64,000 nucleotides of DNA from positions 62,001 to 126,000 of IMG/VR virus record IMGVR_UViG_3300049324_000002. One strand, 5' to 3'. Below, piece by piece: positions 2,085-37,168 of the stretch. Each line of letters begins with the position of its first letter. Position 1 is the first letter of the stretch. The position numbers and the translations under genes were made by a program. Under the pieces are notes generated by a model, which had not been told where the DNA came from, ran no database searches, and worked only from the letters and a program-made list of their open reading frames with translations. This DNA comes from a virus.

Positions 2085-2085
2085 G

Positions 2086-2157: not shown

Positions 2158-2251
2158 ATAAAGCGGGAGACGGTGCGCATCCGTATTAGGAACCCGACCC
2201 CCGCACAACCATCCTACCGTCACGATGACGGACAACGCTCCAGGGCCACCA

Positions 2252-2552
2252 CTAAGCCTGATTATCAAATCTAAGCACTAACGTAGGAAGCGGGCAAATA
2301 TAAACATGATTAGGGCCAAAATAAACACCAACCCACCAGTCAGCTTTATCCCGATACACTTTCTTCGTGTCCCACGCCTGTGATAACAAGCAAAAAACAT
2401 CTGACAACTTCGTCATTGTATTCCAATCCATCAACACTATTATTATACTCGTCCATGATTGGTAAATCACCATGCTCACTGACAAGTTTATTTAATCTGT
2501 CAATAAGAGCAGATGCTGTCAATGGGTGATAAGACTCAGTCACAGCAATCAA
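2252..2552 (-). CDS. Unknown protein read in two frames (apparent +1 frameshift)
   Basis: Frame one starts at TTG 2552, overlapping the stop of the ATPase gene, and runs to 2346 (68 codons, MIAVTESYHPL...). A second open frame (to 2252) continues from about 2405 with a protein-like sequence (AWDTKKVYRDKADWWVG). The frames join at a run of six T; with five T they would give one protein of about 97 aa. Either a fresh indel, a sequencing error, or recoding. The first part resembles small phage proteins with a SALIDRLNKL helix followed by an acidic turn. Function unknown. Confidence 0.5.
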
Positions 2553-3210
2553 TTTTCTTTACTTGTGTAGCACCAGTAGCATCCAAAGAAAACTTATAGC
2601 GAACATCAGCAAATGCTGTTAGCGTTTCCTGATGAGTTACCATAACAATCTGAATACCAGTCGTATCAACAAGAGTGCGTAAGAACTGCCCCGCAGCCTC
2701 GAGATACTCAGAACTCAGGTGAGCCAACGTCTCGTCTAAAACAAGAATCTCCGGGGCATTCCGGCCCGCGCCTCTTGTCAAGAGAATAAGCACAACTCGC
2801 AACAACAACCCAACAACCGCAGCCAAACCACCGCCACGAGCTGACATCACGTCAGTCTCAAACTCAGAACCATCCGGTAAATGTGTCTTCACCACAAAAT
2901 CAACCTGAGGGATACCGCGCGACATAGACTCCACCAAATGGAAAGTCAGTCGCTCCTCGAAGACTGCAGCCAACCCGGCCGACACCAAAGACTCCACCAT
3001 CGCACGCGCAGCCGCGTCACGATCAGAACCGATCTTCGACAGAATCCCCGACACCCGATCCGCAGCCTCCCGCGCTGAGCGCGCCACAACAGCCGCCTGC
3101 TGCAGCTCCTGGCCCCTCGCGGCCAGCATCCGCATCTCGCCCACCCGAGCATCCAAACGACGGCGCGCAGCCCGCACATCATCCGTCAAAACCTGCAAAT
3201 CAGTGCTCAC
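2536..3210 (-). CDS. C-terminal half of an SMC/RecF/Rad50-type ABC ATPase
   Basis: GTG start at 3210. Residues ~5-70 are an Arg/Ala coiled coil. SARGGG near residue 122 fits the ABC signature, EILVLDET near 152 is Walker B with the catalytic Glu, AHLS is the D-loop and VMVTHQ carries the switch His. There is no Walker A P-loop in this protein or its upstream neighbour, so it represents only the C-terminal lobe. Known full-length relatives act in recombination end processing. The missing half may be encoded elsewhere in the genome. Confidence 0.8.
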   Translation of the reverse strand: MSTDLQVLTDDVRAARRRLDARVGEMRMLAARGQELQQAAVVARSAREAADRVSGILSKIGSDRDAAARAMVESLVSAGLAAVFEERLTFHLVESMSRGIPQVDFVVKTHLPDGSEFETDVMSARGGGLAAVVGLLLRVVLILLTRGAGRNAPEILVLDETLAHLSSEYLEAAGQFLRTLVDTTGIQIVMVTHQETLTAFADVRYKFSLDATGATQVKKIDCCD

Positions 3211-3521
3211 TAGCTCACCAACCTAAACGCAAGAAAATAAATAATAGGGCAAGTATCACCATTAATGGACAACCTCGAGTTGACCGCTAGATCAAGCGGA
3301 GTCCACTCAGGTAGATCAAGAGTACTTGAATGCTCACGCTCACAATACCACGTGGCAACACTAAGCCAAAAATGAGGCATCAAATCGTAAGGTAAAGTGA
3401 AAGCTAGACTAATATTAGGATCTCCAGCCAGCCGGAATCCTTCAATAAACAAAACGTCCGGGTCACCAGCGCCAGTATCGGCGATAATCTCTTCTATATC
3501 CTTCTTCGAAATATCGATCAC
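3210..3521 (-). CDS. Unknown protein, 103 aa
   Basis: GTG at 3521 (VIDISKKDIEEII) is preferred because longer in-frame versions overlap the previous gene deeply. The stop overlaps the GTG of the ATPase half-gene, so the two are probably translationally coupled. Acidic N-terminus, then a Phe/Trp-rich mixed segment. It carries no P-loop, so it is not the missing Walker A half. Confidence 0.65.
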   Translation of the reverse strand: MIDISKKDIEEIIADTGAGDPDVLFIEGFRLAGDPNISLAFTLPYDLMPHFWLSVATWYCEREHSSTLDLPEWTPLDLAVNSRLSINGDTCPIIYFLAFRLVS

Positions 3522-3537
3522 GCCAGTATCATACCGG

Positions 3538-4230
3538 CTACGAGACAGACAGCCTCCGGGCCGTTCGAGCCAGCTCAGACTTCTTGATCTCCCTACGCCA
3601 CTCCGGGTAATGCTCAGCAAACTGCTGCGACACCTTACCCCGCTTCTTCAAAACAATATACCCACCCTTAGCCATAGTGAATGGTGAGTGGCACTCATCA
3701 TTATAGTCCAGCTTACCCTTAGCCTGAGAATCAAACCAGCTCTCATAAACAAAGTTAGAAACAGTCACCTTAGTGGAATCAACGGGAACAGTGTAATAAG
3801 AAGACTCGACCGGGTCACAAACCTCAAGAGCAACCTCAATATCAGAATTACCAGTCTCAGCCCACCGATTACAAGTAGGATCTACGAAAATCTCCAACGC
3901 CTCATGAGAACCAACAGACGCCACAGACAACGGTGCAGTCAGAGCATTACCACCATTCTCCAACACCGGACGCACAAAAATGCGACCATAATAAACACCA
4001 TTATCCTCAGTATGCCAACCAAGGTCACCAGCCTGATCCGCATCATCTAACACACCCAAAACCCATGCGCCAGGAGGAACGTCCTTCTCACTCTTAGCGT
4101 AAGCAACAGCCATAGGAGTCAAACGCCAAGCAGGTGCAGCGTGGTAACGAAGCTGATACGCACACGCGCGAACCATTGTCTGGACGTCAGCATCAGAGAT
4201 GAGCTTCGACTTATTCACGAAGTAGATCAC
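3538..4230 (-). CDS. Unknown protein with HExxE motif, possible metallopeptidase-like
   Basis: 230 aa from GTG 4230; no strong ribosome site. The segment SVGSHEALEIFVDPTCNRW around residue 108 resembles the SHExLExxxDPxxNxW signature seen in phage proteins suspected to be zinc metalloproteases; the second His of a classical HExxH is a Glu here. The C-terminal 40 residues are Lys/Arg-rich. Enzyme activity is inference; alternatively a virion-associated structural protein. Confidence 0.7.
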   Translation of the reverse strand: MIYFVNKSKLISDADVQTMVRACAYQLRYHAAPAWRLTPMAVAYAKSEKDVPPGAWVLGVLDDADQAGDLGWHTEDNGVYYGRIFVRPVLENGGNALTAPLSVASVGSHEALEIFVDPTCNRWAETGNSDIEVALEVCDPVESSYYTVPVDSTKVTVSNFVYESWFDSQAKGKLDYNDECHSPFTMAKGGYIVLKKRGKVSQQFAEHYPEWRREIKKSELARTARRLSVS

Positions 4231-4262
4231 GACATGAGTCTTCGGCCAACAAAAAAGCGTGA

Positions 4263-4336
4263 CCCCCGCACTGGGGGTGAAAGGTAGGGAAGTGCGGGGG
4301 CCACTAACCCAGGAGGAGGGGGATGTCCCCCTGGGT
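4263..4336 (-). terminator. Double hairpin, probable terminator
   Basis: A perfect 10-bp stem (4263-4272 with 4291-4300, CCCCCGCACT/AGTGCGGGGG) is followed by a second G/C-rich hairpin (AGGGGG/CCCCCT at 4317-4332 inside ACCCAG/CTGGGT). They lie directly after the stop of the gene at 4346 in the leftward direction. No clear U-tract. Confidence 0.6.
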
Positions 4337-4345
4337 GGTCACAGC

Positions 4346-4612
4346 CTACAGCCTCTTCTTACGGAAAATAGAAATAGATGCAGTATGCGGAATCACATCT
4401 GACCCGGGCAGGGACCTCAAAACACTAGCAATATTGTCGATATTCCCACCAAAACGAACCAAAACAACAGTAGCAACAATATCAGGCAAATGCGACGCAA
4501 GATGAGATAAAACTCTAGAAACCTGAGGCTTCAGATCATTATCAAGAATCAATTTCTCAGTCTCAGCAGTCGCAATGTCAGGAGTTAGCTCCGACAATAG
4601 CTTAGTAGACAC
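4346..4612 (-). CDS. Unknown helical protein, 88 aa
   Basis: GTG at 4612 follows GAGGGGATGAA. Residues 10-45 look helical; the middle has a hydrophobic stretch (DIVATVVLVRFGG) too short to be a sure membrane segment. Followed by the double hairpin at 4263-4336, so it probably ends a transcription unit. Confidence 0.75.
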   Translation of the reverse strand: MSTKLLSELTPDIATAETEKLILDNDLKPQVSRVLSHLASHLPDIVATVVLVRFGGNIDNIASVLRSLPGSDVIPHTASISIFRKKRL

Positions 4613-4652
4613 TTCATCCCCTCAAACAATGCATGAACACTCTGTCAAGGAG

Positions 4653-4874
4653 TCATACCGGACGGCGGAGGGAACGGCCCTTAGCAGTCGCTTCAAACTC
4701 GCAAGAACTACAAACCAAAAAAGGCCACGTCCAAGCAGTCATCTTATAAGGCATACCAGGAACAGAAAAAACATGGTCAGGAGCACTGATAAAGCCAAGA
4801 GTAATTCTTAAAGAAAACGTATTACAATTAGGGCATTTAGCATCTTGAATAACTTCACCAAGCTTAACAGACAT
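4653..4874 (-). CDS. Small zinc-ribbon protein, 73 aa
   Basis: ATG 4874 with AAGGAG 7 nt upstream. CPNC at residue ~14 and CSSC near residue 55 form a four-Cys zinc-ribbon arrangement; the C-terminus is basic. Directly downstream of tRNA-Arg, so probably processed from the same transcript. Likely nucleic-acid or protein binding; exact role unknown. Confidence 0.8.
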   Translation of the reverse strand: MSVKLGEVIQDAKCPNCNTFSLRITLGFISAPDHVFSVPGMPYKMTAWTWPFLVCSSCEFEATAKGRSLRRPV

Positions 4875-4889
4875 TTCTATAGCTCCTTG

Positions 4890-4962
4890 CGCGCTGGGTA
4901 GGATTCGAACCTACATCCTTCTGATCCGTAATCAGAGGCTCCATCCGTTGAGCTACCAGCGC
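4890..4962 (-). tRNA. tRNA-Arg (ACG)
   Basis: Acceptor GCGCTGG/CCAGCGC, D-stem GCTC/GAGC, anticodon stem TCTGA/TCAGA with loop TTACGGA (anticodon ACG) and canonical T-loop TTCGAAT. No encoded CCA; discriminator G. Use for CGN codons would need A34-to-inosine editing by the host. Confidence 0.95.
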
Positions 4963-5083
4963 AAACACCACAGAGTAACGAAACCCGACCACACTCCGAA
5001 ACTAACAGGCCGGGGGAACACCACCGTCGCGATGACAGCGGAAACGCTAAACCCCGGATCAGCTAGATCAAGAGGGAGTCATC

Positions 5084-5251
5084 ATGCAGGTATCCAGCAT
5101 TTTCGATCTCGGTGTGCGTACCGACCGGGACCATGACCACGATCACGACCATGACCACGACCGTGATCGTGGCCGCCGCCACCACTGGGACCGGCGCTGG
5201 GAGTGGGACGGTCGCGACCACCGCTGGGAGCAGCGCTGGTACTGGAACTAA
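5084..5251 (+). CDS. His/Asp/Arg/Trp-rich micro-protein, 55 aa
   Basis: A + strand frame embedded in leftward tRNA genes. ATG 5084 follows AGAGGGAG. The short N-terminus MQVSSIFDLGVRTDR leads into a DHDHDHDHDHD run, then an Arg/His/Trp-rich tail (HHWDRRWEWDGRD, RWEQRWYWN). No signal peptide or membrane segment. The terminator at 5267-5305 follows by 15 nt, which supports a real monocistronic gene. The alternating His/Asp suggests metal binding; the Trp/Arg tail suggests nucleic-acid or membrane contact. Both are inference. I do not recognise a family. Confidence 0.75.
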   Translation: MQVSSIFDLGVRTDRDHDHDHDHDHDRDRGRRHHWDRRWEWDGRDHRWEQRWYWN

Positions 5252-5266
5252 ACATCCAGAACTAAC

Positions 5267-5305
5267 CGAGGCACCCTGTCTAAACACAAAAGACAGGGTG
5301 CCTCG
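5267..5305 (+). terminator. Strong hairpin terminator after the His/Asp-rich gene
   Basis: A perfect 15-bp stem (5267-5281 with 5291-5305; CGAGGCACCCTGTCT and its complement) with a 9-nt A-rich loop. There is no long U-tract on either strand, so it could work in both directions and also shield the leftward tRNA genes. Confidence 0.85.
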
Positions 5306-5363
5306 CTCTATCACCCGATCTCAACACCACTATCAATAAACACAACCCACCTCCTCACAAACG

Positions 5364-5436
5364 CTGCCCCGTTAGGATTTGAACCTAAAATCTCTCGGGC
5401 CAGAACCGAGTGTGTTGCCAGTTACACTACAGGGCA
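5364..5436 (-). tRNA. tRNA-Gln (CTG)
   Basis: Acceptor TGCCCTG/CGGGGCA, D-stem GTGT/ACAC, anticodon stem CTCGG/CCGAG with loop TTCTGGC (anticodon CTG), T-loop TTCAAAT. All arms are complete. Confidence 0.94.
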
Positions 5437-5440
5437 ATAC

Positions 5441-5716
5441 CTAACCCATATCGAGGGCGCGCAACTCATCAAGAATAGCACGTCGCTCACGATCCAACTT
5501 ACCAGGATCAATAGCAAAGAAACGATAAATCAAATCCTGTGCTGACTCATGAGTAGCAAAATACTCAAAAACATTTGCATCCATACAAATCTTGCCAGTA
5601 TCGTCAAGACGACACAAAACTAAACCATCAGACTGAATCCACTCCAAAAACTCAGACAACGTCGAAACTTCCGAAGAAACAGCATTCAATCTATCACACT
5701 CAGGGTAAGAAGTCAT
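5441..5716 (-). CDS. Unknown acidic protein, 91 aa
   Basis: ATG 5716, overlapping the stop of the upstream gene. Acidic overall with a helical C-terminus (DRERRAILDELRAL). The stop is 4 nt from tRNA-Gln, so mRNA and tRNA probably share a transcript. No family recognised. Confidence 0.78.
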   Translation of the reverse strand: MTSYPECDRLNAVSSEVSTLSEFLEWIQSDGLVLCRLDDTGKICMDANVFEYFATHESAQDLIYRFFAIDPGKLDRERRAILDELRALDMG

Positions 5717-5952
5717 TACTCACCAATCCAAGAAGTCACAATACTATAACTCACAGCAGAGGGGGAAACACTAGGATCCTGCTGAATCCCAGCAACACAC
5801 CAATCAGCAGTAGCATCATTAATAGCACGGCGCAATACCTCACCCGGCCACACAACGTCAGGGTCAGACGTGGGCGAATTCACATCAGGCCAATGCTTAG
5901 CAATCAACTCAAACAAATCGTCTTGAAAATTAGATCTATTAGTTAGATTCAC
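5716..5952 (-). CDS. Unknown protein, 78 aa
   Basis: GTG at 5952 is chosen over an earlier ATG because GAAGGAGGAGCT stands directly before it. Contains DPDVVWPGEVLRRAINDA, a helix-rich middle. Lies 17 nt downstream of tRNA-Trp and is coupled to the next gene by a one-base stop/start overlap. Confidence 0.75.
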   Translation of the reverse strand: MNLTNRSNFQDDLFELIAKHWPDVNSPTSDPDVVWPGEVLRRAINDATADWCVAGIQQDPSVSPSAVSYSIVTSWIGE

Positions 5953-5969
5953 AGCTCCTCCTTCATAAG

Positions 5970-6042
5970 CAGGCCGTGCAAGATTCGAACTCACATCTCG
6001 GAGTTTTGGAGGCTCCTGTTTTACCAGTTAAACTAACGGCCC
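5970..6042 (-). tRNA. tRNA-Trp (CCA)
   Basis: Acceptor GGGCCGT/ACGGCCT with one G-U pair, D-stem GTTT/AAAC, anticodon stem GGAGC/ACTCC (inner C-A mismatch), loop CTCCAAA giving anticodon CCA, T-arm GTGAG-TTCGAAT-CTTGC. Confidence 0.88.
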
Positions 6043-6123
6043 AAAATTAAACGGGTAAGCGTGCGTTGGTTAAACGCACCTCGCCTACAGGGAACCACCC
6101 TGCTTGACTCAGTCTCACCCTCG

Positions 6124-6194
6124 AAGCGGAGACGGGAATCGAACCCGTGTTCGCGGCTTTGCAGGCCGCTACCTAGCCTCTCGGTCACTCCACC
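6124..6194 (-). tRNA. tRNA-Cys (GCA)
   Basis: Acceptor GGTGGAG/CTCCGCT (two G-U pairs), anticodon stem GCGGC/GCCGC with loop CTGCAAA (anticodon GCA), T-arm CGGG-TTCGATT-CCCG. Discriminator U as expected for Cys. Confidence 0.93.
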
Positions 6195-6535
6195 ATGGCG
6201 GAGCAGTCAGGATCGCCATTGGCGAGCCTATGCACAACCCTGACCGCTCCAGATACTCGAACACCAGACTTCACCCAGCTCCCTCTCTGGCAAGAGGATC
6301 AACGGAACAGCCTAATCTTAAGATCAAGCTACGAGCCCCGAAAATCACGCTGGCACTCATGCTCGGTAGCGACCCGAACTAAAAGCGGTTCGAGCAGAGA
6401 CAGGTAGGTGAGTGACTAGCTCACCAATTGTCGTCAGGTAGTCAGCCACCCAACGCCCTCGGCAGAAGGGGTCAATCGCTCCATCGGAGTGATTACCGTA
6501 GCTAAAGAAGCGATCAACAACGACTTCCCATCTCG
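6195..6535 (-). other. Gene-free, structured stretch between tRNAs
   Basis: No credible gene. Three hairpins are visible: 6200-6211 with 6239-6250 (12 pairs in the leftward RNA, one G-U, enclosing GCTCGCCAATGGCGA); GGTGAG/GCTCACC at about 6406-6424; and 6474-6482 with 6486-6494. This may be spacer and processing RNA of the tRNA operon or an unrecognised structured RNA. I tested it for tmRNA signatures and found none. Confidence 0.45.
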
Positions 6536-6610
6536 TTGTCCTGCTGGGAATCGAACCCAGTCCTCGTCTGAAGTAGGAACAAACATCTCCGAGCCCACTA
6601 CAACAGAACT
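6536..6610 (-). tRNA. Degenerate tRNA-like element, CTA-centred 9-nt anticodon loop
   Basis: A perfect T-arm (CTGGG-TTCGATT-CCCAG) and a 6-bp acceptor (GTTCTG/CAGGAC) flank a region of tRNA length. The anticodon stem GTTTG/CAGAC begins at position 27 as in a normal tRNA, but the loop is TTCCTACTT, 9 nt with CTA in the centre. The D-stem is poor (GTAG without a good partner). It could be an amber or frameshift suppressor, or a decaying tRNA. The 139 nt up to tRNA-Glu hold only small hairpins. Confidence 0.5.
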
Positions 6611-6749
6611 ACCGGCCCCTCGCCGGGTGTGCGCCGTACACCACTGGACATTACCTGGGGTACCAAGCCTCTCCCAGTCCTAGGAATAGCATCCCCATAA
6701 GGAGATACCCCCAGACACCGTACTCTGTTAGTGCCTGCCTAGCCCATCG

Positions 6750-6820
6750 AAGCCTCAACGGGAGTCAAACCCGCGCTCTCTGATTGAGAATCAGAAGTTC
6801 TATCATTAAACTATGAGGCC
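6750..6820 (-). tRNA. tRNA-Glu (CTC)
   Basis: Acceptor GGCCTCA/TGAGGCT, D-stem GTTT/GAAC, anticodon stem TCTGA/TCAGA with loop TTCTCAA (anticodon CTC), T-loop TTTGACT. Complete cloverleaf. Confidence 0.92.
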
Positions 6821-12636: not shown

Positions 12637-12828
12637 CTACCCACCCCAAGCCCACTGAATAGGTGCAGCCAACGAAATCTTCGAACCACAAAACACACAC
12701 CGCCACTCAGGAAGCTCCACCACACCCGGGACGACCGGGCGCAACACCACAACCCACTCAATACCATAACGTTGGCACGACTCATCCGTGCAAACAATCG
12801 TCACACGAATAGTAGGAACCAACTCCAT
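12637..12828 (-). CDS. Small zinc-ribbon protein, 63 aa
   Basis: ATG 12828, one-base overlap with the upstream stop. CTDESC and CVFC supply four Cys for a zinc ribbon around a Val-rich core. Ends GGG-TAG-GA, supplying the next ribosome site. Confidence 0.8.
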   Translation of the reverse strand: MELVPTIRVTIVCTDESCQRYGIEWVVVLRPVVPGVVELPEWRCVFCGSKISLAAPIQWAWGG

Positions 12829-13151
12829 TACGACAACCTCTGCTTATAAGCAAGCTCGCCAGTACACTCAGAATCAACCAAAATACGCAACCAAAGAGGC
12901 TGACTAGAGATATCAATAATCTCTATGCAGCTCACAAATTTACCATCAACCCCAGATACCATACCACGAACAAAAACACGAATACCCCACGTACCGCCAG
13001 ACCCTTTATCACTGCGCAAAAAATACTGAATATCAACACCACTAACATCAATGTCACGATGATAAATGAAATCGCGAACAAGGTCACAATCCGTCACACT
13101 AGCGGCAACACGCCTACTAGCATTAACGCTCTGAACCTTAACGTTACCCAT
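12828..13151 (-). CDS. PxWL-family paralogue 1, 107 aa
   Basis: ATG 13151 (MGNVKVQSVNASRRVAASV). Member of a nine-copy tandem family: a beta-rich body with the pattern aromatic-x(n)-G-x-W-x-[VI]-x-V near the middle (GGTWGIRVFVRG) and a C-terminal QPLWLRILVD helix. The most diverged C-terminus of the set. Function unknown. Confidence 0.8.
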   Translation of the reverse strand: MGNVKVQSVNASRRVAASVTDCDLVRDFIYHRDIDVSGVDIQYFLRSDKGSGGTWGIRVFVRGMVSGVDGKFVSCIEIIDISSQPLWLRILVDSECTGELAYKQRLS

Positions 13152-13461
13152 TATGATAATCTCGAATCTTGTGCACACCCGGGACAACGGCCAGCGGCTT
13201 ATGCTGCTGAACAAACACACTCAACCAATCAAACTGAGGATTACTAGGAATACCGCCAACGTCGAAATTCAGGAAACTACTCTTACCAAACACAGTAACC
13301 CTATACATTCGCCACTCACCATGCATCTCCCGCTCATACACCACACGAACAGAAGTAGCATCCCACGAACGAATACCAGGACAACCGGTGTCTATTATAG
13401 CTCCATCAACACTAGCAATGATCTCACACAACTCATTAACTTCAGTTACAATAGTTTTCAC
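13144..13461 (-). CDS. PxWL-family paralogue 2, 105 aa
   Basis: GTG at 13461 (GTG 13467 also possible), nested in the end of the upstream paralogue. Shows VRVVYEREMHGEWRMYRVTVFG then NPQFDWLSVFVQQHKP. Coupled to both neighbours by overlaps of a few bases. Confidence 0.8.
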   Translation of the reverse strand: MKTIVTEVNELCEIIASVDGAIIDTGCPGIRSWDATSVRVVYEREMHGEWRMYRVTVFGKSSFLNFDVGGIPSNPQFDWLSVFVQQHKPLAVVPGVHKIRDYHNG

Positions 13462-13781
13462 TCCCACGAAGACACCAACTCACCAGACAACGAATTAGAA
13501 GTATAAGCAGGCATACCCTTAGGGCGTGGCCAAAAATTCTCCACCAACTCACACAACCACGCTGGCAAGCTCGAATCAGGCCAATAAAAAGTAACACTAG
13601 GACCACGATTAAGAGTACGAATAGAATCAACACACCACGAACCATTAATACTACGAGTATACGTAACAACAACCGCACTGGTCTCTAATCGCTTACCGCC
13701 TAAAGGAACCCACGCGCCTCCCCTAATACTGGCAGAAAACGCACGAGTCTCCTCAAAACCATCAACCTCATAAGTAATCAC
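13458..13781 (-). CDS. PxWL-family paralogue 3, 107 aa
   Basis: ATG 13781. Core VVVTYTRSINGSWCVDSIRT and C-terminal LPAWLCELVENFWP match the family frame. No Cys ligand set or known catalytic motif. Confidence 0.8.
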   Translation of the reverse strand: MITYEVDGFEETRAFSASIRGGAWVPLGGKRLETSAVVVTYTRSINGSWCVDSIRTLNRGPSVTFYWPDSSLPAWLCELVENFWPRPKGMPAYTSNSLSGELVSSWE

Positions 13782-14113
13782 TCTTCATCCACACCCAACG
13801 CAACATCCAAAGGATAAGTCGGACCAGTAGGAGTGTTGTTAAGTATAAAATCAAGCAACCACTGAGGCTGGTCAGACATAAAAAGAGACTCGCCACCCTT
13901 ACATTTAGTATTAACAGAACCATCAGCATTGATAGGGTAATACCTCACCCACACACCCCAACAACGCCAACGGCCCTCAGTACGCTCATAAACAGCTTCG
14001 ATCTCCGTAACATCAACCAACGTATGCTCAATAGCAGAACGAACAGGCTCCTCATTCTCCACATCAGCATAAGCAACATACTTAGAAAGACGATCACGCA
14101 GCTTCACCGTCAT
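13778..14113 (-). CDS. PxWL-family paralogue 4, 111 aa
   Basis: ATG 14113. AVYERTEGRWRCWGVWVRYY in the middle and QPQWLLDFILNNTP near the end, the clearest form of the C-terminal motif. Overlaps paralogue 3 by ATGA-type spacing. Confidence 0.82.
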   Translation of the reverse strand: MTVKLRDRLSKYVAYADVENEEPVRSAIEHTLVDVTEIEAVYERTEGRWRCWGVWVRYYPINADGSVNTKCKGGESLFMSDQPQWLLDFILNNTPTGPTYPLDVALGVDEE

Positions 14114-14138
14114 GATTTACTCCTCGAAAGATCAGCCA

Positions 14139-14432
14139 TCACACAGGCATATTATCTTGGATAAACTGTCGTACCCAATCAGGCTGATCCCGTCGAGGCA
14201 ACGGCACCGTCGACGGCAACAAACTCAACCGACCATCATCGAAAACCCACCGCCCCGTCACCTGCGGAGCCCGCACCTGCCAATGCCCATGACCATCAAC
14301 TCGTCGCGAAAACGAGATCTTAATGCTACTCACAAGAAGTGAAGGAGAGTTAGACAAAAACTTAATCGGCTCCTCGTCAAAGACCATAGCTCGCACTTCG
14401 AACATCGCAGTAACAGACTCAGGATCTATCAT
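14139..14432 (-). CDS. PxWL-family paralogue 5, 97 aa
   Basis: ATG 14432 behind GGGTAGGACTAGGT (TAG = upstream stop). SFSRRVDGHGHWQVRAPQVTG and QPDWVRQFIQDNMP fit the family. Short N-terminus relative to the others. Confidence 0.8.
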   Translation of the reverse strand: MIDPESVTAMFEVRAMVFDEEPIKFLSNSPSLLVSSIKISFSRRVDGHGHWQVRAPQVTGRWVFDDGRLSLLPSTVPLPRRDQPDWVRQFIQDNMPV

Positions 14433-14440
14433 ACCTAGTC

Positions 14441-14668
14441 CTACCCGGCAGTGACGGCGCTTGCCCAATACTTACAATGGTTACGCTGGATCACCTCACG
14501 TGACGGACCGCTCAACACCAGAATCTCCACCTCAGGATAAGCAGAATACTGAGGTTCCAACGAAAAACGATATCTCAACGCAATATCTGAATCATCGAAA
14601 GTAGCCTCACCAAGTAACTTACTCTGAATACGATCATAAACAACCAGTATATTAACTGCCTGACTCAT
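14441..14668 (-). CDS. Unknown protein, 75 aa
   Basis: ATG 14668 (MSQAVNILVVYDRIQSKLL), overlapping the upstream stop. Predicted alternating beta strands (EATFDDSDIALRYRFSLE). Ends GGG-TAG-GA. Not a PxWL paralogue. Confidence 0.75.
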   Translation of the reverse strand: MSQAVNILVVYDRIQSKLLGEATFDDSDIALRYRFSLEPQYSAYPEVEILVLSGPSREVIQRNHCKYWASAVTAG

Positions 14669-14996
14669 CCAAATCACGCTCCCACATAGCTAACTCCGCA
14701 GCATTCTTGCCCATACTCTTCACTTTAGGCGCCCAATGCGTGGCCAACGCAATAGCCTCCTGCTCACCAAAACGATGGTCATCTAACCATTGATCGTAAG
14801 ACTCACCGTCAGCACAACCATCACTCCACCAACCATCACGACCTAAAAACGAACCCTCATGCGTAACCGACCACCGCTCAAAACCACGATGCTCAACCTT
14901 AATCACCCAATGACGCCTATTAATATTATTAAAAGGAACGCAACACACTTCATACGAAGCAATCCTAAAATCAACTTTAGGCGTTTTCTGCGTCAT
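14652..14996 (-). CDS. Unknown protein, 114 aa
   Basis: ATG 14996 (MTQKTPKVDFRIASYEV). Trp-rich middle (GRDGWWSDGCADGESYDQW) and helical C-terminus (GKNAAELAMWERDLDE). No family recognised. Confidence 0.78.
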   Translation of the reverse strand: MTQKTPKVDFRIASYEVCCVPFNNINRRHWVIKVEHRGFERWSVTHEGSFLGRDGWWSDGCADGESYDQWLDDHRFGEQEAIALATHWAPKVKSMGKNAAELAMWERDLDESGS

Positions 14997-15336
14997 AATC
15001 AGCTCGATCCTTCTCCTCGTACTGAGCATGCTCAAAAGCAAGATGTGCATCTTCACCCATAATACGAACACACTTCACACAAATCTCATAATCACAAAAC
15101 ACATCAATGTAACGATCCTCAAACGCTGGGGACGTCGACCCCACCCAACCACACAACGACACCACAGGACCATGCATCAACGCCATCATTGGCTGCGGAG
15201 GCTTCAACCCATAAGGAGCCAAAAACCGCGTCCACGCACGCTCCCGCATACCCGGATCGGAGGCGACGATATGCACCATCCCCGTCCGACCATTACGAAC
15301 AAACTCAGGCTCCTCATCAGGCGCGTGCGTAACCAT
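14977..15336 (-). CDS. Unknown protein, 119 aa
   Basis: ATG 15336 (MVTHAPDEEPEFVRNG) in an overlap with the stop of the membrane gene. FCDYEICVKCVRIMGED near residue 85 has a CxxC that may bind zinc with other residues. Otherwise unknown. Confidence 0.78.
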   Translation of the reverse strand: MVTHAPDEEPEFVRNGRTGMVHIVASDPGMRERAWTRFLAPYGLKPPQPMMALMHGPVVSLCGWVGSTSPAFEDRYIDVFCDYEICVKCVRIMGEDAHLAFEHAQYEEKDRADYDAENA

Positions 15337-16328
15337 CACTTACCAGTCTTCCGCTCCACATAATCAGCAATCTTCCTCAAAGAAGTACCGCGATCATTCA
15401 TACGCATAACATCCTTAAGAAGCTTATCCCCATATACCTCACGTGCCTTATCCATAGCAGGATGCTTCCTGCCATTCCTACCTCTAGGGCCATCATAAGG
15501 CTGAATCTCTTCAAGCAAATGATCAACGCCACACCTATCATCACTATGCATGTTGACAGCAGTCTCTAAGCTACCGCCATACATAGCATCAGCTAGCAAA
15601 TCATAATGACCACCCTGCCACATACCAACTGCCTGACTAGAATTCTTATTGCGCAACCCAGACAACCAACGATCTGTCAAATCAGCAGAATCATCACTAG
15701 ATACTTCTTCTGCAGGGATATCAGTCGGCATCCTCAATGTAGATGTCATACCAAACAATGTCCCTACTTTTGGGGCCGCATCACCACCAGCCTTAGGCTT
15801 GTCAGGACTAGCCTCTGCAGGCTTCTCGACCTTCGACACCGGCTGACTCGCCGTCGACCCACTAGAACCGCCCACAGCACGGGCCAGCACCCACACCAGA
15901 CCGAGCACCAAGCCGCCCCCAACAACCGGGCCAATCGTCGAACCGAAGCCCGCCACGACCGCCCCAGCAACGTACAACACGTGAAACACAGACATCAAAG
16001 ACTGCCAAATAAGATACCCAATATACGCAGCGAATGCGCCAACACCCGTAACCAACCCAAAAAGCAAAGCCTCAGACCAAGGAAAATAACGAACCCAATC
16101 CAACCGCGAATCAGATTTACTAACAGGCTTATCAACAACAGGTGCATCTACAACCTGCTCGACAACCTCGCCCTCCACCACCAACGGCTGCGCGACCACC
16201 AACTCCGCACCAGACGGACCCGGCTTAGGGAAACCAGGCAACGGACCAACAGTAACAATAACCTCAGGAACAATAACCTCAGGCTCGTCAACCTCACGAA
16301 CAGGCTTAGGCTTTGGATCAGTGCTCAC
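15336..16328 (-). CDS. Membrane protein with C-terminal HTH-like segment, 330 aa
   Basis: GTG 16328. Domains in order: a Pro/Val/Glu-rich N-terminal arm (~70 aa), two hydrophobic segments (~residues 88-112 and 115-155), a Ser/Pro/Lys-rich linker (~160-190), and a soluble C-terminal part ending DVMRMNDRGTSLRKIADYVER, which resembles the helix-turn-helix of resolvase or phage regulators. A membrane-tethered DNA-binding or genome-anchoring role is possible but is inference. Largest gene of this operon. Confidence 0.8.
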   Translation of the reverse strand: MSTDPKPKPVREVDEPEVIVPEVIVTVGPLPGFPKPGPSGAELVVAQPLVVEGEVVEQVVDAPVVDKPVSKSDSRLDWVRYFPWSEALLFGLVTGVGAFAAYIGYLIWQSLMSVFHVLYVAGAVVAGFGSTIGPVVGGGLVLGLVWVLARAVGGSSGSTASQPVSKVEKPAEASPDKPKAGGDAAPKVGTLFGMTSTLRMPTDIPAEEVSSDDSADLTDRWLSGLRNKNSSQAVGMWQGGHYDLLADAMYGGSLETAVNMHSDDRCGVDHLLEEIQPYDGPRGRNGRKHPAMDKAREVYGDKLLKDVMRMNDRGTSLRKIADYVERKTGK

Positions 16329-16358
16329 GGCATCCTCGATCTGAAGTATAATACTAAT

Positions 16359-16898
16359 TTATCCGTACGAACAACACACGTGCCAACCAGGAGTACCAAT
16401 TACAGGAACACGCAAATCCAACAAAGCAACAAAATCACGCATCTGAGTATTCCACTCAGGGCGAGCATTCAAGGCATTCAACTGAACACAACCCCAATCA
16501 GGAGTCTCCTGCACCGACTCCCTAATCCTCACACAATAAGCAGGTTCATCACGATAACCATACTCAGCAAAATCTACATTCAAATCTTCAATAATACGTT
16601 TCTGCCTATCACGATTAGCCGTATAATCCTTAAACTCAGCAGTATTGTAAAATATCGCGTTGGCAGCAAGTCTTTCCTCACGACTACAAGGATAACTAAT
16701 ATCTAAAGAAGAAGGACGTACAGGTCTAGAAACAGGAACCCAACCCAACTTCTTAGATACAACATCGCGCCAATCCTCGGAATCAGAACCATCCGCAGGC
16801 TCCATCCACAAAGGCTTAAAATCCTCTGACGTATGAGGATCAAACATATCCCCTAGATTCCAACCCCAAAACACAGTAGCTGACGCAGCATCACTCAC
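16359..16898 (-). CDS. Unknown protein, 179 aa
   Basis: GTG 16898 after GAGGAAGTA. Trp/Asp-rich N-terminus (FWGWNLGDMFDPHTSEDF), basic middle (NRDRQKRIIEDLNVDF), two C-terminal Cys. No family recognised. Confidence 0.8.
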   Translation of the reverse strand: MSDAASATVFWGWNLGDMFDPHTSEDFKPLWMEPADGSDSEDWRDVVSKKLGWVPVSRPVRPSSLDISYPCSREERLAANAIFYNTAEFKDYTANRDRQKRIIEDLNVDFAEYGYRDEPAYCVRIRESVQETPDWGCVQLNALNARPEWNTQMRDFVALLDLRVPVIGTPGWHVCCSYG

Positions 16899-17104
16899 TA
16901 CTTCCTCCTCAAAAGTCTGACACGACGAATAGAACGCTTACTCCACACATCATCATGGTCATCGACTTCAGTCAAAGAAACAAGCACAAGATGACTATCA
17001 AAAGACCACACATCAAAATAATTATCTGCCAAATCAGGACTATGTGATTCGTGCCGAAACACACTACCATCACGATACTTGACCTTAACTTTATACATTT
17101 TCAT
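16898..17104 (-). CDS. Small unknown protein, 68 aa
   Basis: ATG 17104 (MKMYKVKVKYRDGSVFRHES). Looks like a compact beta protein with a basic tail (SKRSIRRVRLLRRK), possibly RNA- or DNA-binding. One-base overlap with the next gene. Confidence 0.78.
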   Translation of the reverse strand: MKMYKVKVKYRDGSVFRHESHSPDLADNYFDVWSFDSHLVLVSLTEVDDHDDVWSKRSIRRVRLLRRK

Positions 17105-17108
17105 AAGA

Positions 17109-17429
17109 TCACGGACCTACAGCAACAAACTTCTCGCAATGATAAACATCCGAACGATCAGTAGGCTCCGCAACCCTCTCCCACTCCACAGGAGTACGAC
17201 CACACATCGAAATCAACACCAACGGACAACCCACCGACGACGACCCAGCACGGAACGCCGCGTCATGACGACAATTACCGCACCACCGACCAGTCCAAAT
17301 CAAACCCTCATCTGAATTAGAGAACGGGGAACCCTCTATAGCCAGGCTCCACGTATCCTCCAACACCTCTAAATCCCCAGGGAGCGGCTCACCCGGCCCA
17401 GCAACATAAGGATCCGAAACCTCACTCAT
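17109..17429 (-). CDS. Cys-containing protein, 106 aa
   Basis: ATG 17429 (MSEVSDPYVAGPGEPLPG) behind TGGAGGGATGGACG. WCGNCRH and later Cys/His residues (CPLVLISMCG, YHCEKF) may form a metal site. No enzyme motif. Confidence 0.75.
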   Translation of the reverse strand: MSEVSDPYVAGPGEPLPGDLEVLEDTWSLAIEGSPFSNSDEGLIWTGRWCGNCRHDAAFRAGSSSVGCPLVLISMCGRTPVEWERVAEPTDRSDVYHCEKFVAVGP

Positions 17430-17623
17430 CGTCCATCCCTCCATAACGTAGACTCGTGTTTGTCCGCGCATTCAGCGCACACACGCACCCATCTACCCGC
17501 TACCAACACCAAAGCCTCAAGCTCACCATGCTCCACTGGCCCTGACCGGCCAGTTCTCGACTCAAACGGACAACGAACAAAATCATCGTCATCCAACTCA
17601 CCCAAAGGATTTACTGCTGACAT
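17426..17623 (-). CDS. Small zinc-binding protein, 65 aa
   Basis: ATG 17623, overlapping the stop of paralogue 6. CPF and VCAECADKHES give a CxxC...H site of the type used by short phage zinc fingers. Acidic N-terminus (GELDDDDF). Confidence 0.76.
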   Translation of the reverse strand: MSAVNPLGELDDDDFVRCPFESRTGRSGPVEHGELEALVLVAGRWVRVCAECADKHESTLWRDGR

Positions 17624-17931
17624 CACGAAACCCCAGGCATCTGCTTAGCAATCCAATCAAGCAGCCACTTAGGCTGAAAGCATTTGTTGTGCAAAGATAT
17701 AGTAATCATATCAGGAGGAACCCATCCATCAGGATCATCCCGAACTTCATCAAAAAAGCCAGTCACTAAAACAGAATCCACACGCCACCGCACGTCACGA
17801 CGCGCGAAGTTAACCTCAACCTCTACCACATCAAATAACGGACCATGAATCGACAACCGAATAGGATCCTGATCAATCACAGAAGCAACAATAGTCTGTG
17901 CACCACGAATACTCGTCAACTGAAAAGCCAT
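17623..17931 (-). CDS. PxWL-family paralogue 6, 102 aa
   Basis: ATG 17931 (MAFQLTSIRGAQTIVASV). VNFARRDVRWRVDSVLVTGFF followed by FQPKWLLDWIAKQMP. First of four copies upstream of the second family block. Confidence 0.82.
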   Translation of the reverse strand: MAFQLTSIRGAQTIVASVIDQDPIRLSIHGPLFDVVEVEVNFARRDVRWRVDSVLVTGFFDEVRDDPDGWVPPDMITISLHNKCFQPKWLLDWIAKQMPGVS

Positions 17932-18239
17932 CACGAAATCCCACCCGCTGGCTTACGCTCCATCACCCAAGACCACAACCAACCCTTAATACCATCAGGG
18001 AACAACATATGGTCCGTCTCATAAGCGCGAACACCATCTTCACTCATCAAAAAACCAGCAACCCTCACAGCATCCACACACCACTCGCTGCCAGTCAACT
18101 GACTACATTTATAGTCAACGCGAAATCTAGTGACAAGCAACTGCTCGCGGCGAGCCGGGAAAAGCGAAATAGGAGGCATCTCCTCGACCTCCGTATAAAC
18201 GGAGTGAGTGCCAGCCAGACTCACGACCTTAATACCCAT
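17931..18239 (-). CDS. PxWL-family paralogue 7, 102 aa
   Basis: ATG 18239 (MGIKVVSLAGTHSVYTEV). FRVDYKCSQLTGSEWCVDAV and IKGWLWSWVMERKP match the family. Overlaps paralogue 6 by a base. Confidence 0.82.
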   Translation of the reverse strand: MGIKVVSLAGTHSVYTEVEEMPPISLFPARREQLLVTRFRVDYKCSQLTGSEWCVDAVRVAGFLMSEDGVRAYETDHMLFPDGIKGWLWSWVMERKPAGGIS

Positions 18240-18242
18240 GAC

Positions 18243-18614
18243 CTATCCTACCGCAGGCACGTCAGGACGATGCTCCTCAGCAAAATCCAACAACCAACCC
18301 GGGACCCTGTCCGGCAACACCTCAATCTCCACACAACCTAAATCATAACCAATAGGAACACCACTCGCGCGTGCGTAACTACCTCGCGCTTTCAACATAA
18401 AAGTAGTCCAAACAGCAGACCCTGGCTCACGACGATAATGAACAGACACAGCATTAGGCAAAAACTTCAAATCCATAATATCAGAAGGAACACTCAAAAT
18501 AGGCTCACCAACCACAGACCCTGACACCACATGCCTCTCCGCAACACGCGCATGATACAAACTAAACGGAGGGGTAATCGTCGTGTAAGTAACATCCGTG
18601 ATTCTTATCGTCAT
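18243..18614 (-). CDS. PxWL-family paralogue 8, 123 aa
   Basis: ATG 18614 (MTIRITDVTYTTITPPFSLY). VSVHYRREPGSAVWTTFMLK and VPGWLLDFAEEHRP. Overlaps the 75-aa gene upstream by 53 nt. Slightly longer N-terminus than its relatives. Confidence 0.8.
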   Translation of the reverse strand: MTIRITDVTYTTITPPFSLYHARVAERHVVSGSVVGEPILSVPSDIMDLKFLPNAVSVHYRREPGSAVWTTFMLKARGSYARASGVPIGYDLGCVEIEVLPDRVPGWLLDFAEEHRPDVPAVG

Positions 18615-18789
18615 CGTCGTCCTTGATCTCATAGAACTCAGTATCACCATAAACACACTCGAAAGACTCTTCGCCGCGATCCGCTTTCTCTAACACACGC
18701 TCACGCAGGAACGCCTTACTAGAACCCTCCGGAGCCTCTACCACAGTACAAATAACAGACTCCTGCGATACAATCACTCGGAAACGCAT
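18562..18789 (-). CDS. Unknown acidic protein, 75 aa
   Basis: ATG 18789. N-terminal beta-like part (MRFRVIVSQESVICTVVE), a charged helix (LRERVLEKADRG) and an Asp-rich patch near the end. Overlaps both paralogues 8 and 9, so translation of the three is likely coupled. Confidence 0.75.
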   Translation of the reverse strand: MRFRVIVSQESVICTVVEAPEGSSKAFLRERVLEKADRGEESFECVYGDTEFYEIKDDDDDKNHGCYLHDDYPSV

Positions 18790-19106
18790 CGTGACCCCGT
18801 CTCCGTAGGCGAAAACCGAAACACCAAATCAACAACCCAGGTATTCGACAACTCATGATTATCAAAATGAAGATAAGTTGGAAGAGAACCAATACCACTA
18901 CCGTCAGAACGAACCATCATACCAGATATCTTCACATCGACAACCTCCCACACACCACCAGTTTTATCTGCCCTAGCGTATTTAATCTCCAAAAAATCAA
19001 CTTCGATAAACAACGGAGGATTAGTACCAGGAATATGCAATTTATCAAAACCATCAACATTTAATTTAACAGTGCAAGTAGCAGACGCACTAGATACATT
19101 AGACAC
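18774..19106 (-). CDS. PxWL-family paralogue 9, 110 aa
   Basis: GTG 19106 with AAGGAG 6 nt upstream; first gene after the 4-kb pentamer array. LEIKYARADKTGGVWEVVDV in the middle, LSNTWVVDLVFRFSP at the C-terminal position. The most diverged in the PxW motif (Asn-Thr-Trp). Confidence 0.8.
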   Translation of the reverse strand: MSNVSSASATCTVKLNVDGFDKLHIPGTNPPLFIEVDFLEIKYARADKTGGVWEVVDVKISGMMVRSDGSGIGSLPTYLHFDNHELSNTWVVDLVFRFSPTETGSRCVSE

Positions 19107-19122
19107 AACAAACTCCTTCGTA

Positions 19123-22100
19123 ACGTCGGAAAGGAAAAGACGGGAATCGCACTGACCCGGGAAGTCGGATGAGAACTGAAGTGGAAACGAATGGTCGGGC
19201 TCGAGTAGTCGAGTAGAACTGAATGGACGTGCATAGTCGGAACCGATTGGAAGGGAATAGACACGATCTGAGTAGTCGAATCGACGCGATCCGGCCAGGA
19301 ATGGAGTAGTCGGTAAAGAATAGACTCGACACGTAAAGACAGAAGCGATCAGTCGAAACGACCGGGCACGAAACGCAGTGACGTGGCTTGTCGGAAAGAA
19401 CGGAAGTGCGCCGCCAGGAGTAGTCGAGCCGATCGGATGCGATAGGGCGTGACGTGGCTTGTCGGTGATGGCCAGTAATGACCGGGGGCGACTCGTGTAG
19501 TCGGGTCAGACCAGACTCGCCTTGGACATGAGTAGTCGAAGGACCAGAAACGACTCGCCGTGACATGTCGTATTGTACCGACGTGATCCGCCTGGTCTCG
19601 AATCGCGAAGTCGGAGCTGGATGGGGGAGCGGAGAGAAGTCGGAGCTGAGTGGAACGGAGATGAGGAGTCAGTAGGGGACGACAAGATCTGAATGGTCGA
19701 ACAGAAACGACGAGATTTGTGCGGTCAAAAGAGTCGAAACGATCTGACCCGATCCGATTCGTCGCATTGCAGTGATTGGAACTGACTTGGCTGGTCGAAC
19801 AGAATCGAAAGGACATGGCTTGTCGACGGGAACGAGAGGGCTTGACTGGTCGATCGGAGTCGGACGGAGCTGGCTAGTCGAAATGAATCGCCCGGACCTG
19901 AAAGAAGTGACTTGTCGAACAGGCACGAAATGATATGGATTGTCGAACAGAATCGAAAGGACTTGACTGGTCGATGGAAATGAAAAGACGTGAGTTGGCT
20001 GGTCAAGCGACTCGACTAGGCTGGAACTGACTCGTCGGTAAAGGATCGTCAGGAATCGGAATGAGTAGTCGACAGGAATCGAATAGAGTAGACTCGTCAG
20101 ATCGGGATCGCTGGGATTCGAATAGACTTGTCGGAAAAGAGTAGACTTGACAGGACTAGACGTGAGTGGTCAGACAGTCATGGCTTGACTTGAAACGAGT
20201 GGTCGGTGCGGTCACGATCTGACTCGAAATGAGTGGTCAAAAAGAACTGACCTGACGAGACAGGGTTAGTCGAAAAGAACTGGCCTGACCCGGGGCGACC
20301 GGACGTGAGAAGTCAAGCGAATCGAACAGACATGTTAGTGACCGGATGTGTCGAATCGGCATGACCTGACTTGTAGTGAGAAGTCGAAACGTATCGAATC
20401 GAAAGCGATAGGCCTTGGAGTGTCAAACGAAGTGACTCGGCCAGGCGTGACTGGTCAACAGAATCGACTCGTTGACGAATAGTCAAAGTGGTTCGGATCG
20501 ATTCGCCTCGGCTCGCGTAGTCAACTGAGAAGGAAAGATCTGAATGGAAGAGTCGGACTGGAAACGTCGAGGGCTGACCTGAAACGAGTAGTCGGACTAG
20601 GAATGCCAAGAAACGATTAGCATCGAGTAGTCGGAATAGAATAGCTAAGGCAAGACAAGATCAGTCGGAACAGACAGGACTCGCAAAGGAACAGAAGTGC
20701 CATGAGTAGTCGGTCCGACGTGAATCGACAATGTTAGGAATAGTCGTACGGGGCCGATACGCCTCGACTTGAACTGTCGAAACGAAATGACTTGGCGGGC
20801 ATGGAGAAGTCGGTCTAGAAACGACAAGATCTGCAACGGCTAGTCAGATCGGAGGGAATTGACTGGTATGGAAGCGGGAAGTCGGATGGGGAATGACTGG
20901 ATTGGAAAGCGGGTAGTCACGCGAGACGAATCGACACGCATAGTCGAACAGACATGATAGGAAACGCGTCGAGTAGTCGTCAAGGACTGACCCGACACGA
21001 GTAGTCAAAAGGCACGCATCGTCTGGAAACGAGTAGTCAAACGGGGTGAATCGCCACGCACAGTCAACCGACTCGATCTGACCCGTAAGGAAACGAGTAG
21101 TCGGAAAGAAAGGAAGCGAAGACGGAACGCGTCGAGTAGTCGGAACGGATGAGTAATGAAATCGCATCGCCACGAGTAGTCGGCATGGCAGGGGAGAGGC
21201 GAGAGTAGTCGAAAGGACGTGAACCGATATGAATAGATTCGTCGTATCGAGCTGAGGGGATGAGAAACGCATCGCGTAGTCAGACGGGACTGGACATGAT
21301 TAGTCGGATAAGACGTGAGCGGTAAAGAGTAGTCGGAAGTGTGCCGCTAGGACCTGACACGTCAAGCGAACAGAGTCGATCTGACCCGTCAACAGAAGTG
21401 ACACGTAAAGAATAGTCGGACCCGGAAGGTAGGGAACGGACCTGACACGTCACCAGAGCAGAAGTGGCACGCAAAGAGTAGTCAACTGACACGGAGTGAG
21501 TGGACGTGGATAGCGTAGTCAATCGAGACGACCCGAAACGCAAGGAGAAGTCGGAAAAGATACGGACAGAAAGTGGATTGAGTAGTCATACGAGACGACA
21601 CGGAACGTAAGGAGAAGTCGTGCGATTCGAATCGATAGGAATCGAAGTAGAGTAGTCGAACGGACCCGACGTGGGAGGAAAAGGGCAGTCACCTGACCCG
21701 GCGCGGACCGAGCGGGAAAGAGTAGTCGAGGTGGAGAGCCCAGAATCGATCTGTCGAAGCGGACCGAACGGTCGTGAATTGAGTAGTCGTACTGAGTTGG
21801 AATCGAGTGGGAATGAGTAGTCAACTGAGCGGAATTGTACAGAGTAGTCAAACGAATCGAAGCGGTATCGCGCGGGAATGAGTAGTCGCACAGTATTGAG
21901 CGGGCTCGCGTTGAGTAGTCAACTGACACGAAGGGACGTGGCACGATCCGTCAGGTCACATCGCATCGAATAGACGTGAGTAGTCGAAACGAAGGGAAAC
22001 GACTCGGGTCGGCTCGAACAGAGATGTCGAAACGAATCGGCGGGATATGGAAAGTCGTAACGGGTCGGCGGGATGTGAGATGTCGAAAAGATAAGACACG

Positions 22101-23110
22101 ACCGGAAAAGAAGAAAGAGACGCGACTGGTCGAACGAAAAGAATCGGAATGGATCGCGTAGACTCGTCACCAGAACAGAGCGGGTCGGTAGTGATCTGTC
22201 GGGCGACAAGACACGGCGCGATGTGAAAAGTCGAAAGAAACGACCTGAACCGTAGAGCATCGACAGGTCGCTGGGAACGAATTGTCCGGGCCAGAGAAGT
22301 CACACGAGTGGGAACGAATAGGTCTGTCACTCGAAATGAGTTGACGCGGTAATGGGTAGTCAAGTGAAAAGACGTGGCAGGAATGGACGTGAGTAGTCAC
22401 ACGATCCGATATGATCGGAAGGGACTTGTCGGTATAGTAAGAATGGATCGGTGACGATCAGTCGAATAGACCGGGAACGACACAACGCGACATGAGTAGT
22501 CAATCGAATCGATAAGCGTGGCATGGACTTGTCGGACTAGCAAGGACCAGAAAAGATCTGTCGAACGGACCTGACTCGACCAGCATGGACATGAGTAGTC
22601 AACTGACACGGATCGAGTGGCATGGACTTGTCGAAACGAAGGGATACGCCTCGACTTGACCTGTCAAAAGACCGGAAAGGACCAGACTCGACGCGATAGG
22701 TCACATCGAAACAAATAGACGCGAATCGTCAAACGATAAGACAAGATGCGAAACGACTGGACCTGTCGAAATGATCGGACGGGCAGTGATTTGTCAAATG
22801 AAGCGATTGGACGGGAAATGACACGTCACATGAATCGACCGGGAGCGACCCGATAGGTCGTACGAAGTGAAAGGGCAGGAAAGGACATGTCAGCATGAAC
22901 AGAAATGTAGCGATCTGAACGGTCGTGCAGAAGTGGGGTGATGGGAAAGGACATGTCAGTGCGAATGGACCGGGCATGACTTGCCACGTCAAGCGACCAG
23001 ACCAGACTAGACTCGAAGCGATAGGTCGAACAGGAACGACGCGACTCGATAGGATATGTCACAACGACCGGAATCGACGCGTCACGACGCGATATGTCAC
23101 ACGATACCCA
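19123..23110. repeat. 4-kb pentamer-phased GTC/NNNGA array, gene-free
   Basis: About 4 kb of 5-nt-periodic DNA. On the + strand each unit is GTC followed by pentamers NNNGA or NNNGG, usually 5-8, then GTC again, often as GAGTA-GTC or GGCTT-GTC. Distances counted by eye are 28, 33, 38 or 43 nt after GTCGA; 27, 32 or 37 after GTCA; 34, 39 or 44 after GTCGG: always anchor plus a multiple of five. Trinucleotides inside the pentamers vary freely. A five-base period cannot encode protein, and the open frames across it are by-products. Begins 17 nt before the start codon of the gene at 19106 and ends before tRNA-Lys(TTT). Confidence 0.9.
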
Positions 23111-36891: not shown

Positions 36892-36925
36892 TCTAGAAAG
36901 CCCCCTAAATTGCAATGAACGAATA

Positions 36926-37117: not shown

Positions 37118-37123
37118 GCTAGA

Positions 37124-37152: not shown

Positions 37153-37168
37153 GTAGGTAAACCCTGTA

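What the first reader, a model, noticed from the sequence alone, without database searches (positions are those of the whole stretch)
12828..19106. Nine tandem paralogues with a PxWLxxF C-terminal motif
Genes at 12828, 13144, 13458, 13778, 14139, 17623, 17931, 18243 and 18774 share aromatic-Arg...GxWxVxxVxVxG and a closing PxW[LV]xx[FL][IV]xxxxP. All ~100-120 aa and highly diverged. Such expansion of a small unknown protein suggests an interaction arms race, for example anti-defence factors with different targets.
Basis: partly seen in the sequence, partly recalled or inferred. Interest (0 to 1): 0.68.

Follow-up and report, generated by a model that had tools for sequence, protein, structure and literature searches.

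The report
Nine diverged copies of phage protein
A large virus of actinobacteria carries nine very different copies of one small, uncharacterised protein that most related phages and plasmids carry only once, which suggests the virus diversified a binding module used against its host, although what it binds is not known.

Summary
Nine - strand genes (12828-19106) encode one diverged family, 16-33% identical in pairs. Leave-one-out profiles recover every member (E 5e-13 to 2e-3), no other ORF in the pieces fetched from the 146 kb virus record scores better than E 0.19, and every member beats 200 shuffles. They lie in two runs (five, then four) separated by about eight other genes.

AlphaFold2 gives the same fold for a central and the most divergent member: three long strands, a short strand and a C-terminal helix. 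No solved structure matches. Both models match the same unnamed actinophage proteins. Profile searches place homologues in Streptomyces, Gordonia and Rhodococcus phages, a Streptomyces plasmid and about 2% of genomes of one actinobacterial family. Phage records with hits hold one gene each; two phages and two plasmid-like contigs hold two-domain fusions. No library gives a function.

Best reading: non-structural, non-enzymatic binding modules of actinobacterial mobile elements, diversified here into nine specificities, probably against host factors. Counter-defence is plausible (two related members lie near ardA) but unshown, and no dN/dS test was possible. Homology is near certain; function is inference.

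The parts
12828..13151 (-). family member m1 (107 aa; ORF extends to GTG 13220, ATG 13151 more likely)
   Evidence: leave-one-out profile E 5.6e-9
13144..13467 (-). family member m2 (107 aa)
   Evidence: leave-one-out profile E 3.3e-8
13458..13781 (-). family member m3 (107 aa), the most divergent
   Evidence: leave-one-out profile E 2.4e-3; 14.0 bits against 5.2 for the best of 200 shuffles; AlphaFold2 model pLDDT 82.8
13778..14113 (-). family member m4 (111 aa)
   Evidence: leave-one-out profile E 1.4e-10; phmmer link to m6 at about 1e-7
14139..14468 (-). family member m5 (109 aa from TTG 14468; ATG at 14432 also possible)
   Evidence: leave-one-out profile E 4.8e-11
17623..17934 (-). family member m6 (103 aa from GTG; ATG at 17931), the most central
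   Evidence: leave-one-out profile E 5.2e-13; AlphaFold2 model pLDDT 85.9
17931..18239 (-). family member m7 (102 aa); stop overlaps the start of m6
   Evidence: leave-one-out profile E 1.1e-10; junction
18243..18614 (-). family member m8 (123 aa; ORF extends to GTG 18656)
   Evidence: leave-one-out profile E 4.6e-6
18774..19106 (-). family member m9 (110 aa), first gene of the region, preceded by AAGGAG
   Evidence: leave-one-out profile E 2.8e-8; upstream sequence
14441..17626 (-). about eight unrelated small genes between the two runs (including 14441-14677, 14652-14996, 14977-15339, 15336-16328, 16359-16898, 16898-17104, 17109-17438, 17426-17626); not family members
   Evidence: ORF list; not matched by the family profile; no Pfam function; 17109-17438 matches phrog_6074, unknown function
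18562..18789 (-). 75-aa ORF between m9 and m8, not a family member
   Evidence: ORF list; not matched by the family profile

Best explanation
Shown: the nine genes are diverged paralogues of one small domain (about 100 aa: three long beta strands, a short fourth strand and a C-terminal helix, as predicted), which occurs, mostly as one gene, in accessory non-structural regions of phages and plasmids of actinobacteria, and which has become a two-domain fusion in other elements. Inferred: the domain is a non-enzymatic binding module. The only residues kept throughout are two Trp, a Gly and a Pro that look like fold residues, while the rest varies freely, as expected if each copy keeps a scaffold and changes its binding face. 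Inferred further: the copies are made from one operon and each binds a different host protein, or variants of one host protein such as restriction or other defence factors, to favour infection; this virus gained its nine specificities by gene duplication and divergence.
For: Homology of all nine and no further copy in the record pieces searched. Same predicted fold for the central and the most divergent member, and both find the same actinophage structures. Homologues by the nine-member profile: Kela gp170 9e-7, Streptomyces sp. NBC_01244 plasmid 1e-6, Abt2graduatex2 gp62 2e-6, Lollipop1437 gp9 1e-4, Tonitrus gp73 4e-11. The nine-member profile found one place per phage or plasmid record with a hit. 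Duplication recurs: phiSAJS1 gp69 and Mischief19 gp70 hold two copies in one protein, and a plasmid-like contig of G481 holds a one-domain and a two-domain gene side by side. No conserved polar residue that could be catalytic. Homologues lie outside the structural modules, near ardA, DUF932 genes and HicA- or RelE-like toxin genes. General prior: in mycobacteriophage LeBron 32% of genes impaired host growth when overexpressed, about half of them of unknown function (PMC13148394).
Against: No target, no phenotype and no characterised homologue. The ardA neighbourhoods are only two, in related members. Signatures of positive selection could not be tested: no diverged relative of the virus was found. 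High divergence is also what old duplicates under weak constraint would show. One clade for the nine is neither shown nor rejected.
Confidence: 0.4

Rival explanations
1. The nine are subunits of one phage-encoded hetero-oligomer: the domain pairs with itself, and diverged copies assemble into one complex with a job inside the infected cell.
For: Two-domain fusions in phiSAJS1, Mischief19, G481 and G557, and a one-domain gene next to a two-domain gene in G481, suggest that the domains work together. All nine sit in one operon-like region with several overlapping junctions.
Against: Most homologous phages manage with one single-domain copy. No interface was predicted; complexes were not modelled.
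Confidence: 0.22
2. The proteins act on phage or host nucleic acids or on phage gene expression, for example as small beta-sheet nucleic-acid binders.
For: Small beta-rich protein in a non-structural region; homologues in Woodruffviruses lie near RuvC-like resolvase genes.
Against: The nine are neutral to acidic, net charge 0 to -8; no conserved basic patch in the alignment; no match to a nucleic-acid-binding family or structure.
Confidence: 0.15
3. The copies are old duplicates drifting under weak constraint; only one or a few matter, and the number nine has no functional meaning.
For: Very long branches for all nine (1.1 to 3.5 changes per column); no positive-selection evidence can be given.
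Against: All nine frames are intact, with plausible starts, gene-like codon-position composition equal to other genes of the virus, the fold residues kept in every copy and a confident model even for the most divergent copy; phage genomes usually lose useless genes.
Confidence: 0.13
4. The proteins are minor virion components.
For: Small beta proteins in many copies could decorate virions.
Against: The array lies between tRNA genes and small unknown genes, away from portal, capsid and tail genes of this virus; homologues lie outside structural modules; members occur on plasmids; no structural PHROG match (best E 0.28).
Confidence: 0.04

Closest known systems
PHROG phrog_28946 (Gordonia phages Lollipop1437 gp9, GTE8 gp87; unknown function)
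   Same: Same motif order and closing PWM..M....RP; nine-member profile finds Lollipop1437 gp9 at 1e-4 and GTE8 gp87 at 1.6e-3; fold match probability 1.00 to GTE8
   Different: One gene per phage; the window members themselves match phrog_28946 only at E 0.054 at best
PHROG phrog_16041 (Woodruffvirus: Abt2graduatex2 gp62, phiSAJS1 gp69; unknown function)
   Same: Nine-member profile E 2e-6 and 2e-9; fold match to YDN12 E 1e-4, probability 1.00
   Different: Duplication occurs inside one protein (two domains) instead of as separate genes
Plasmid and chromosome-borne members (WP_327258247.1 of Streptomyces sp. NBC_01244; G481, G557, G736)
   Same: Same domain by profile, also tandem or fused in G481 and G557
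   Different: Up to three domains; carried on plasmid-like contigs or next to ardA or DUF932 genes
PHROG phrog_5352 (Arthrobacter phage Sonny gp53; unknown function)
   Same: Fold match probability 0.99 (m6) and 0.90 (m3)
   Different: Sequence profile only marginal (E 0.07); at most a distant relative

Membership tests
Single paralogous family (nine members) | each member found by a profile of the other eight | tested here: met
   E 5e-13 to 2.4e-3, none of the other ORFs below E 0.19; shuffles and random sets far lower
Single paralogous family (nine members) | common fold | tested here: met
   m6 and m3 modelled, same order of elements and same structural neighbours; two of nine only, shared alignment
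Single paralogous family (nine members) | one clade, that is expansion within this virus lineage | tested here: inconclusive
   one clade not rejected (AU p 0.17) but not recovered (three changes); long branches
Actinobacterial mobile-element domain (phrog_28946 / phrog_16041 type) | profile similarity along the domain, with the closing PxW motif | tested here: met
Known anti-defence or anti-restriction protein (ArdA and others) | sequence or fold match to a characterised anti-defence protein | tested here: not met
   no Pfam, NCBIfam or PDB match with a function; PADLOC lists defence rather than anti-defence proteins and gives one match at E 0.016
Known anti-defence or anti-restriction protein (ArdA and others) | blocks a host defence system | not testable with these tools
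   needs experiment
Arms-race (positively selected) family | raised dN/dS at surface positions between relatives | not testable with these tools
   only a 99-100% identical locus found; paralogues saturated
Virion protein | lies in the structural module or matches a structural family | tested here: not met
   outside the structural module here and in homologous phages; no structural PHROG match better than E 0.28

The most novel reading that the evidence does not exclude
The domain is a general, evolvable counter-host module of actinobacterial mobile elements with a fold unlike any solved structure, and this virus carries a nine-piece toolkit in which each copy neutralises a different defence or housekeeping protein.
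Probability: 0.25. Interest if true: 0.75.

Novelty: new variant of a known kind. Interest (0 to 1): 0.42.

Why it matters
The family has no Pfam model and no function, yet it recurs in phages of Streptomyces, Gordonia and Rhodococcus and in Streptomyces plasmids, some near ardA. A virus that has diversified it ninefold offers nine natural variants of one scaffold to test side by side, so the function of a widespread unknown could be found with one expression screen. If the copies do bind different host factors, they would also point to the host proteins that matter in infection.

Tried and rejected
Single-protein searches of viral contigs found only the near-identical contig of the same virus and a chance hit (L010, a contig with a match overlapping the portal-like gene in another reading). 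Viral-contig searches with neighbouring genes, to find sister viruses for dN/dS, found only the same contig. Genome contigs with the plasmid member found nothing. Pfam, NCBIfam, PADLOC and PDB sequence searches gave no functional match. Foldseek against the PDB gave only weak matches (best E 0.8), which I do not interpret. BetterKatz gp44 and Sonny gp53 come up by fold; sequence does not confirm them. A DNA-mimic role was considered because of acidity, but net charge ranges only from 0 to -8. A first survey of 297 class genomes found no bacterial member; the broader profile later did, so the first empty answer was lack of sensitivity. Magritte, the phage with the closest portal, carries no recognisable member. 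A first script that would have joined them failed before joining, and all later analysis was piece by piece.

Full report
What is there. The window is bases 62001-126000 of a 146,490-base virus record. Pairwise identity is 16-33%, and simple phmmer links only m4, m5 and m6, so the family claim needed a profile test. Each member was left out in turn, a profile was built from the other eight, and 1018 ORFs of the window and the fetched flanks were searched. The left-out member was recovered every time, at E 5e-13 (m6) to 2.4e-3 (m3); the best non-member reached E 0.19. Scores were 14-45 bits, against at most 6.5 for 200 shuffles of each member and at most 3.8 for random sets of nine ORFs of similar size. 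A later, wider profile of 23 rows found nothing more in the same ORFs. The stretches fetched, with the window, cover the record from end to end and were analysed piece by piece.

Layout. The copies form two runs: m1-m5 (12828-14468) and m6-m9 (17623-19106). Between the runs lie about eight unrelated small genes, and between m9 and m8 a 75-aa ORF. Several neighbouring genes overlap or abut, for example the TGATG at the m7/m6 junction; m9, the first gene, follows an AAGGAG. Codon-position composition is that of other genes of the virus. All this suggests one operon read from about 19.1 kb, although no promoter was mapped.

What kind of virus. The portal protein is 41% identical to that of Microbacterium phage Magritte over 92% of the query, so an actinobacterial host is likely. 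The host is not known. Magritte has no recognisable member.

Fold. AlphaFold2 with the nine-row alignment gave mean pLDDT 85.9 for m6 (strands 9-17, 32-45, 48-60 and 76-80, helix 88-97) and 82.8 for m3, the most divergent member (strands 11-27, 30-43, 49-57 and 63-65, helix 74-82). The two models share an alignment, so they are not fully independent. Against the PDB nothing matched convincingly (best E 0.8, probability 0.05). Against predicted viral structures both models found the same unnamed actinophage proteins: YDN12 (E 1e-4 and 2e-3, probability 1.00), GTE8, BetterKatz, the 255-aa entry A0A0S2MU25 (the length of phiSAJS1 gp69), and Sonny.

Relatives. A hand-made consensus, then the family profile, led to homologues in Streptomyces phages Kela and Frankenweenie, the Woodruffvirus group (Abt2graduatex2, YDN12, TP1604, Xkcd426, phiSAJS1, Mischief19), Gordonia phages Lollipop1437, Foxboro, RedRaider and GTE8, Rhodococcus phage Tonitrus, and a plasmid of Streptomyces sp. 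NBC_01244. The profile of the nine alone scores those tested at 4e-11 to 1.6e-3. In bacterial genomes a 24-row profile found members in 1 of 395 genomes drawn from the class and in 9 of 395 of one family, which fits carriage by mobile elements. One locus lies beside genes that look like an integrase and a RecT (L129, my reading), one near ardA (L138), and two lie on contigs of 262 kb and 98 kb with DUF932 and DNA-ligase-like genes. The screen scores only a few candidates per genome, so these are lower bounds.

Duplication is a habit of this domain. phiSAJS1 gp69 and Mischief19 gp70 contain it twice, as do proteins of G481 and G557, and G481 also has a third, separate copy directly upstream. 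Nine separate genes is the largest set seen here. A tree could not show whether the nine form one clade: not recovered, not rejected (AU p 0.17), with end branches of 1.1 to 3.5 changes per column for the nine.

Mechanism. Across 24 rows one Trp is invariant and a second Trp, a Gly and a Pro are nearly so. These sit in the third strand, at its end, and in and after the C-terminal helix, and are best read as fold residues. No polar residue is conserved, so an enzyme is unlikely. That leaves binding. In other phages the gene lies outside the structural module, in regions of small unknown genes, with HicA- or RelE-like toxin genes a few genes away; in two plasmid or chromosomal loci it lies near ardA. 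This is the usual company of host-modulating genes and gives modest support to a role against host proteins, counter-defence included. Published work shows how common such activity is: 32% of the genes of mycobacteriophage LeBron impaired host growth when overexpressed (PMC13148394). I commit to diversified host-binding modules at 0.4, with hetero-oligomer subunits, nucleic-acid functions and drifting duplicates as rivals.

What is not shown. No target, no expression time, no phenotype and no selection test. The only other contig found to cover the locus is the same virus (99-100% identical), so dN/dS between relatives could not be computed, and the paralogues are saturated.

Novelty. Lineage-specific expansion of a small accessory phage protein is a known kind of event. 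The family itself appears in PHROGs only as unnamed clusters (phrog_28946, phrog_16041), has no Pfam model, and has a predicted fold without a match in the PDB. The nine-member set and the link between the phage and plasmid members appear to be new; I found no paper that describes them in the searches made, which were few.

Noticed in passing
window 19107-23100: About 4 kb without plausible genes directly upstream of the array, with a 5-bp periodicity (G autocorrelation 1.74 at lag 5, 1.59 at lag 10): on the + strand runs of GANNN pentamers broken by GTC or GTAGTC, with dispersed near-repeats of 28, 33, 38 and 48 bases (5n+3). Purpose unknown.
   Followed up: partly
window 36900-50000: Many small - strand genes begin with a shared ...CYAS(C/F)MTNT reading, that is a conserved sequence running across the start codon, as if each gene had its own start-associated or leaderless promoter (seen in the ORF list).
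   Followed up: no
L013 5817-6181 (Rhodococcus phage E3 gp131.5): The family domain seems split over two frames: the first half in the annotated gene, the closing PQWVLDFIERYRP in an overlapping frame. Either a frameshift or a sequencing error.
   Followed up: no
L014, L127, L138, L141: DUF932 genes lie near the domain on the NBC_01244 plasmid and on the G481 and G557 contigs, and ardA near it on the NBC_01244 plasmid and in G736: possible early-region modules of actinobacterial plasmids.
   Followed up: partly
window 31903-32088 with 32092-32277; 33332-33598 with 33595-33861: Two further adjacent pairs of small genes look like paralogues by eye (for example PSQQLLVELEDYPSEDGTVLVGF and PSDLIVWVERPPLLDDGTVLVSF), so small-gene duplication may be common in this virus.
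   Followed up: no
window 2085-6820 and 42467-42541: Seven tRNA genes (Lys, Arg, Gln, Trp, Cys, Glu, Ser).
   Followed up: no
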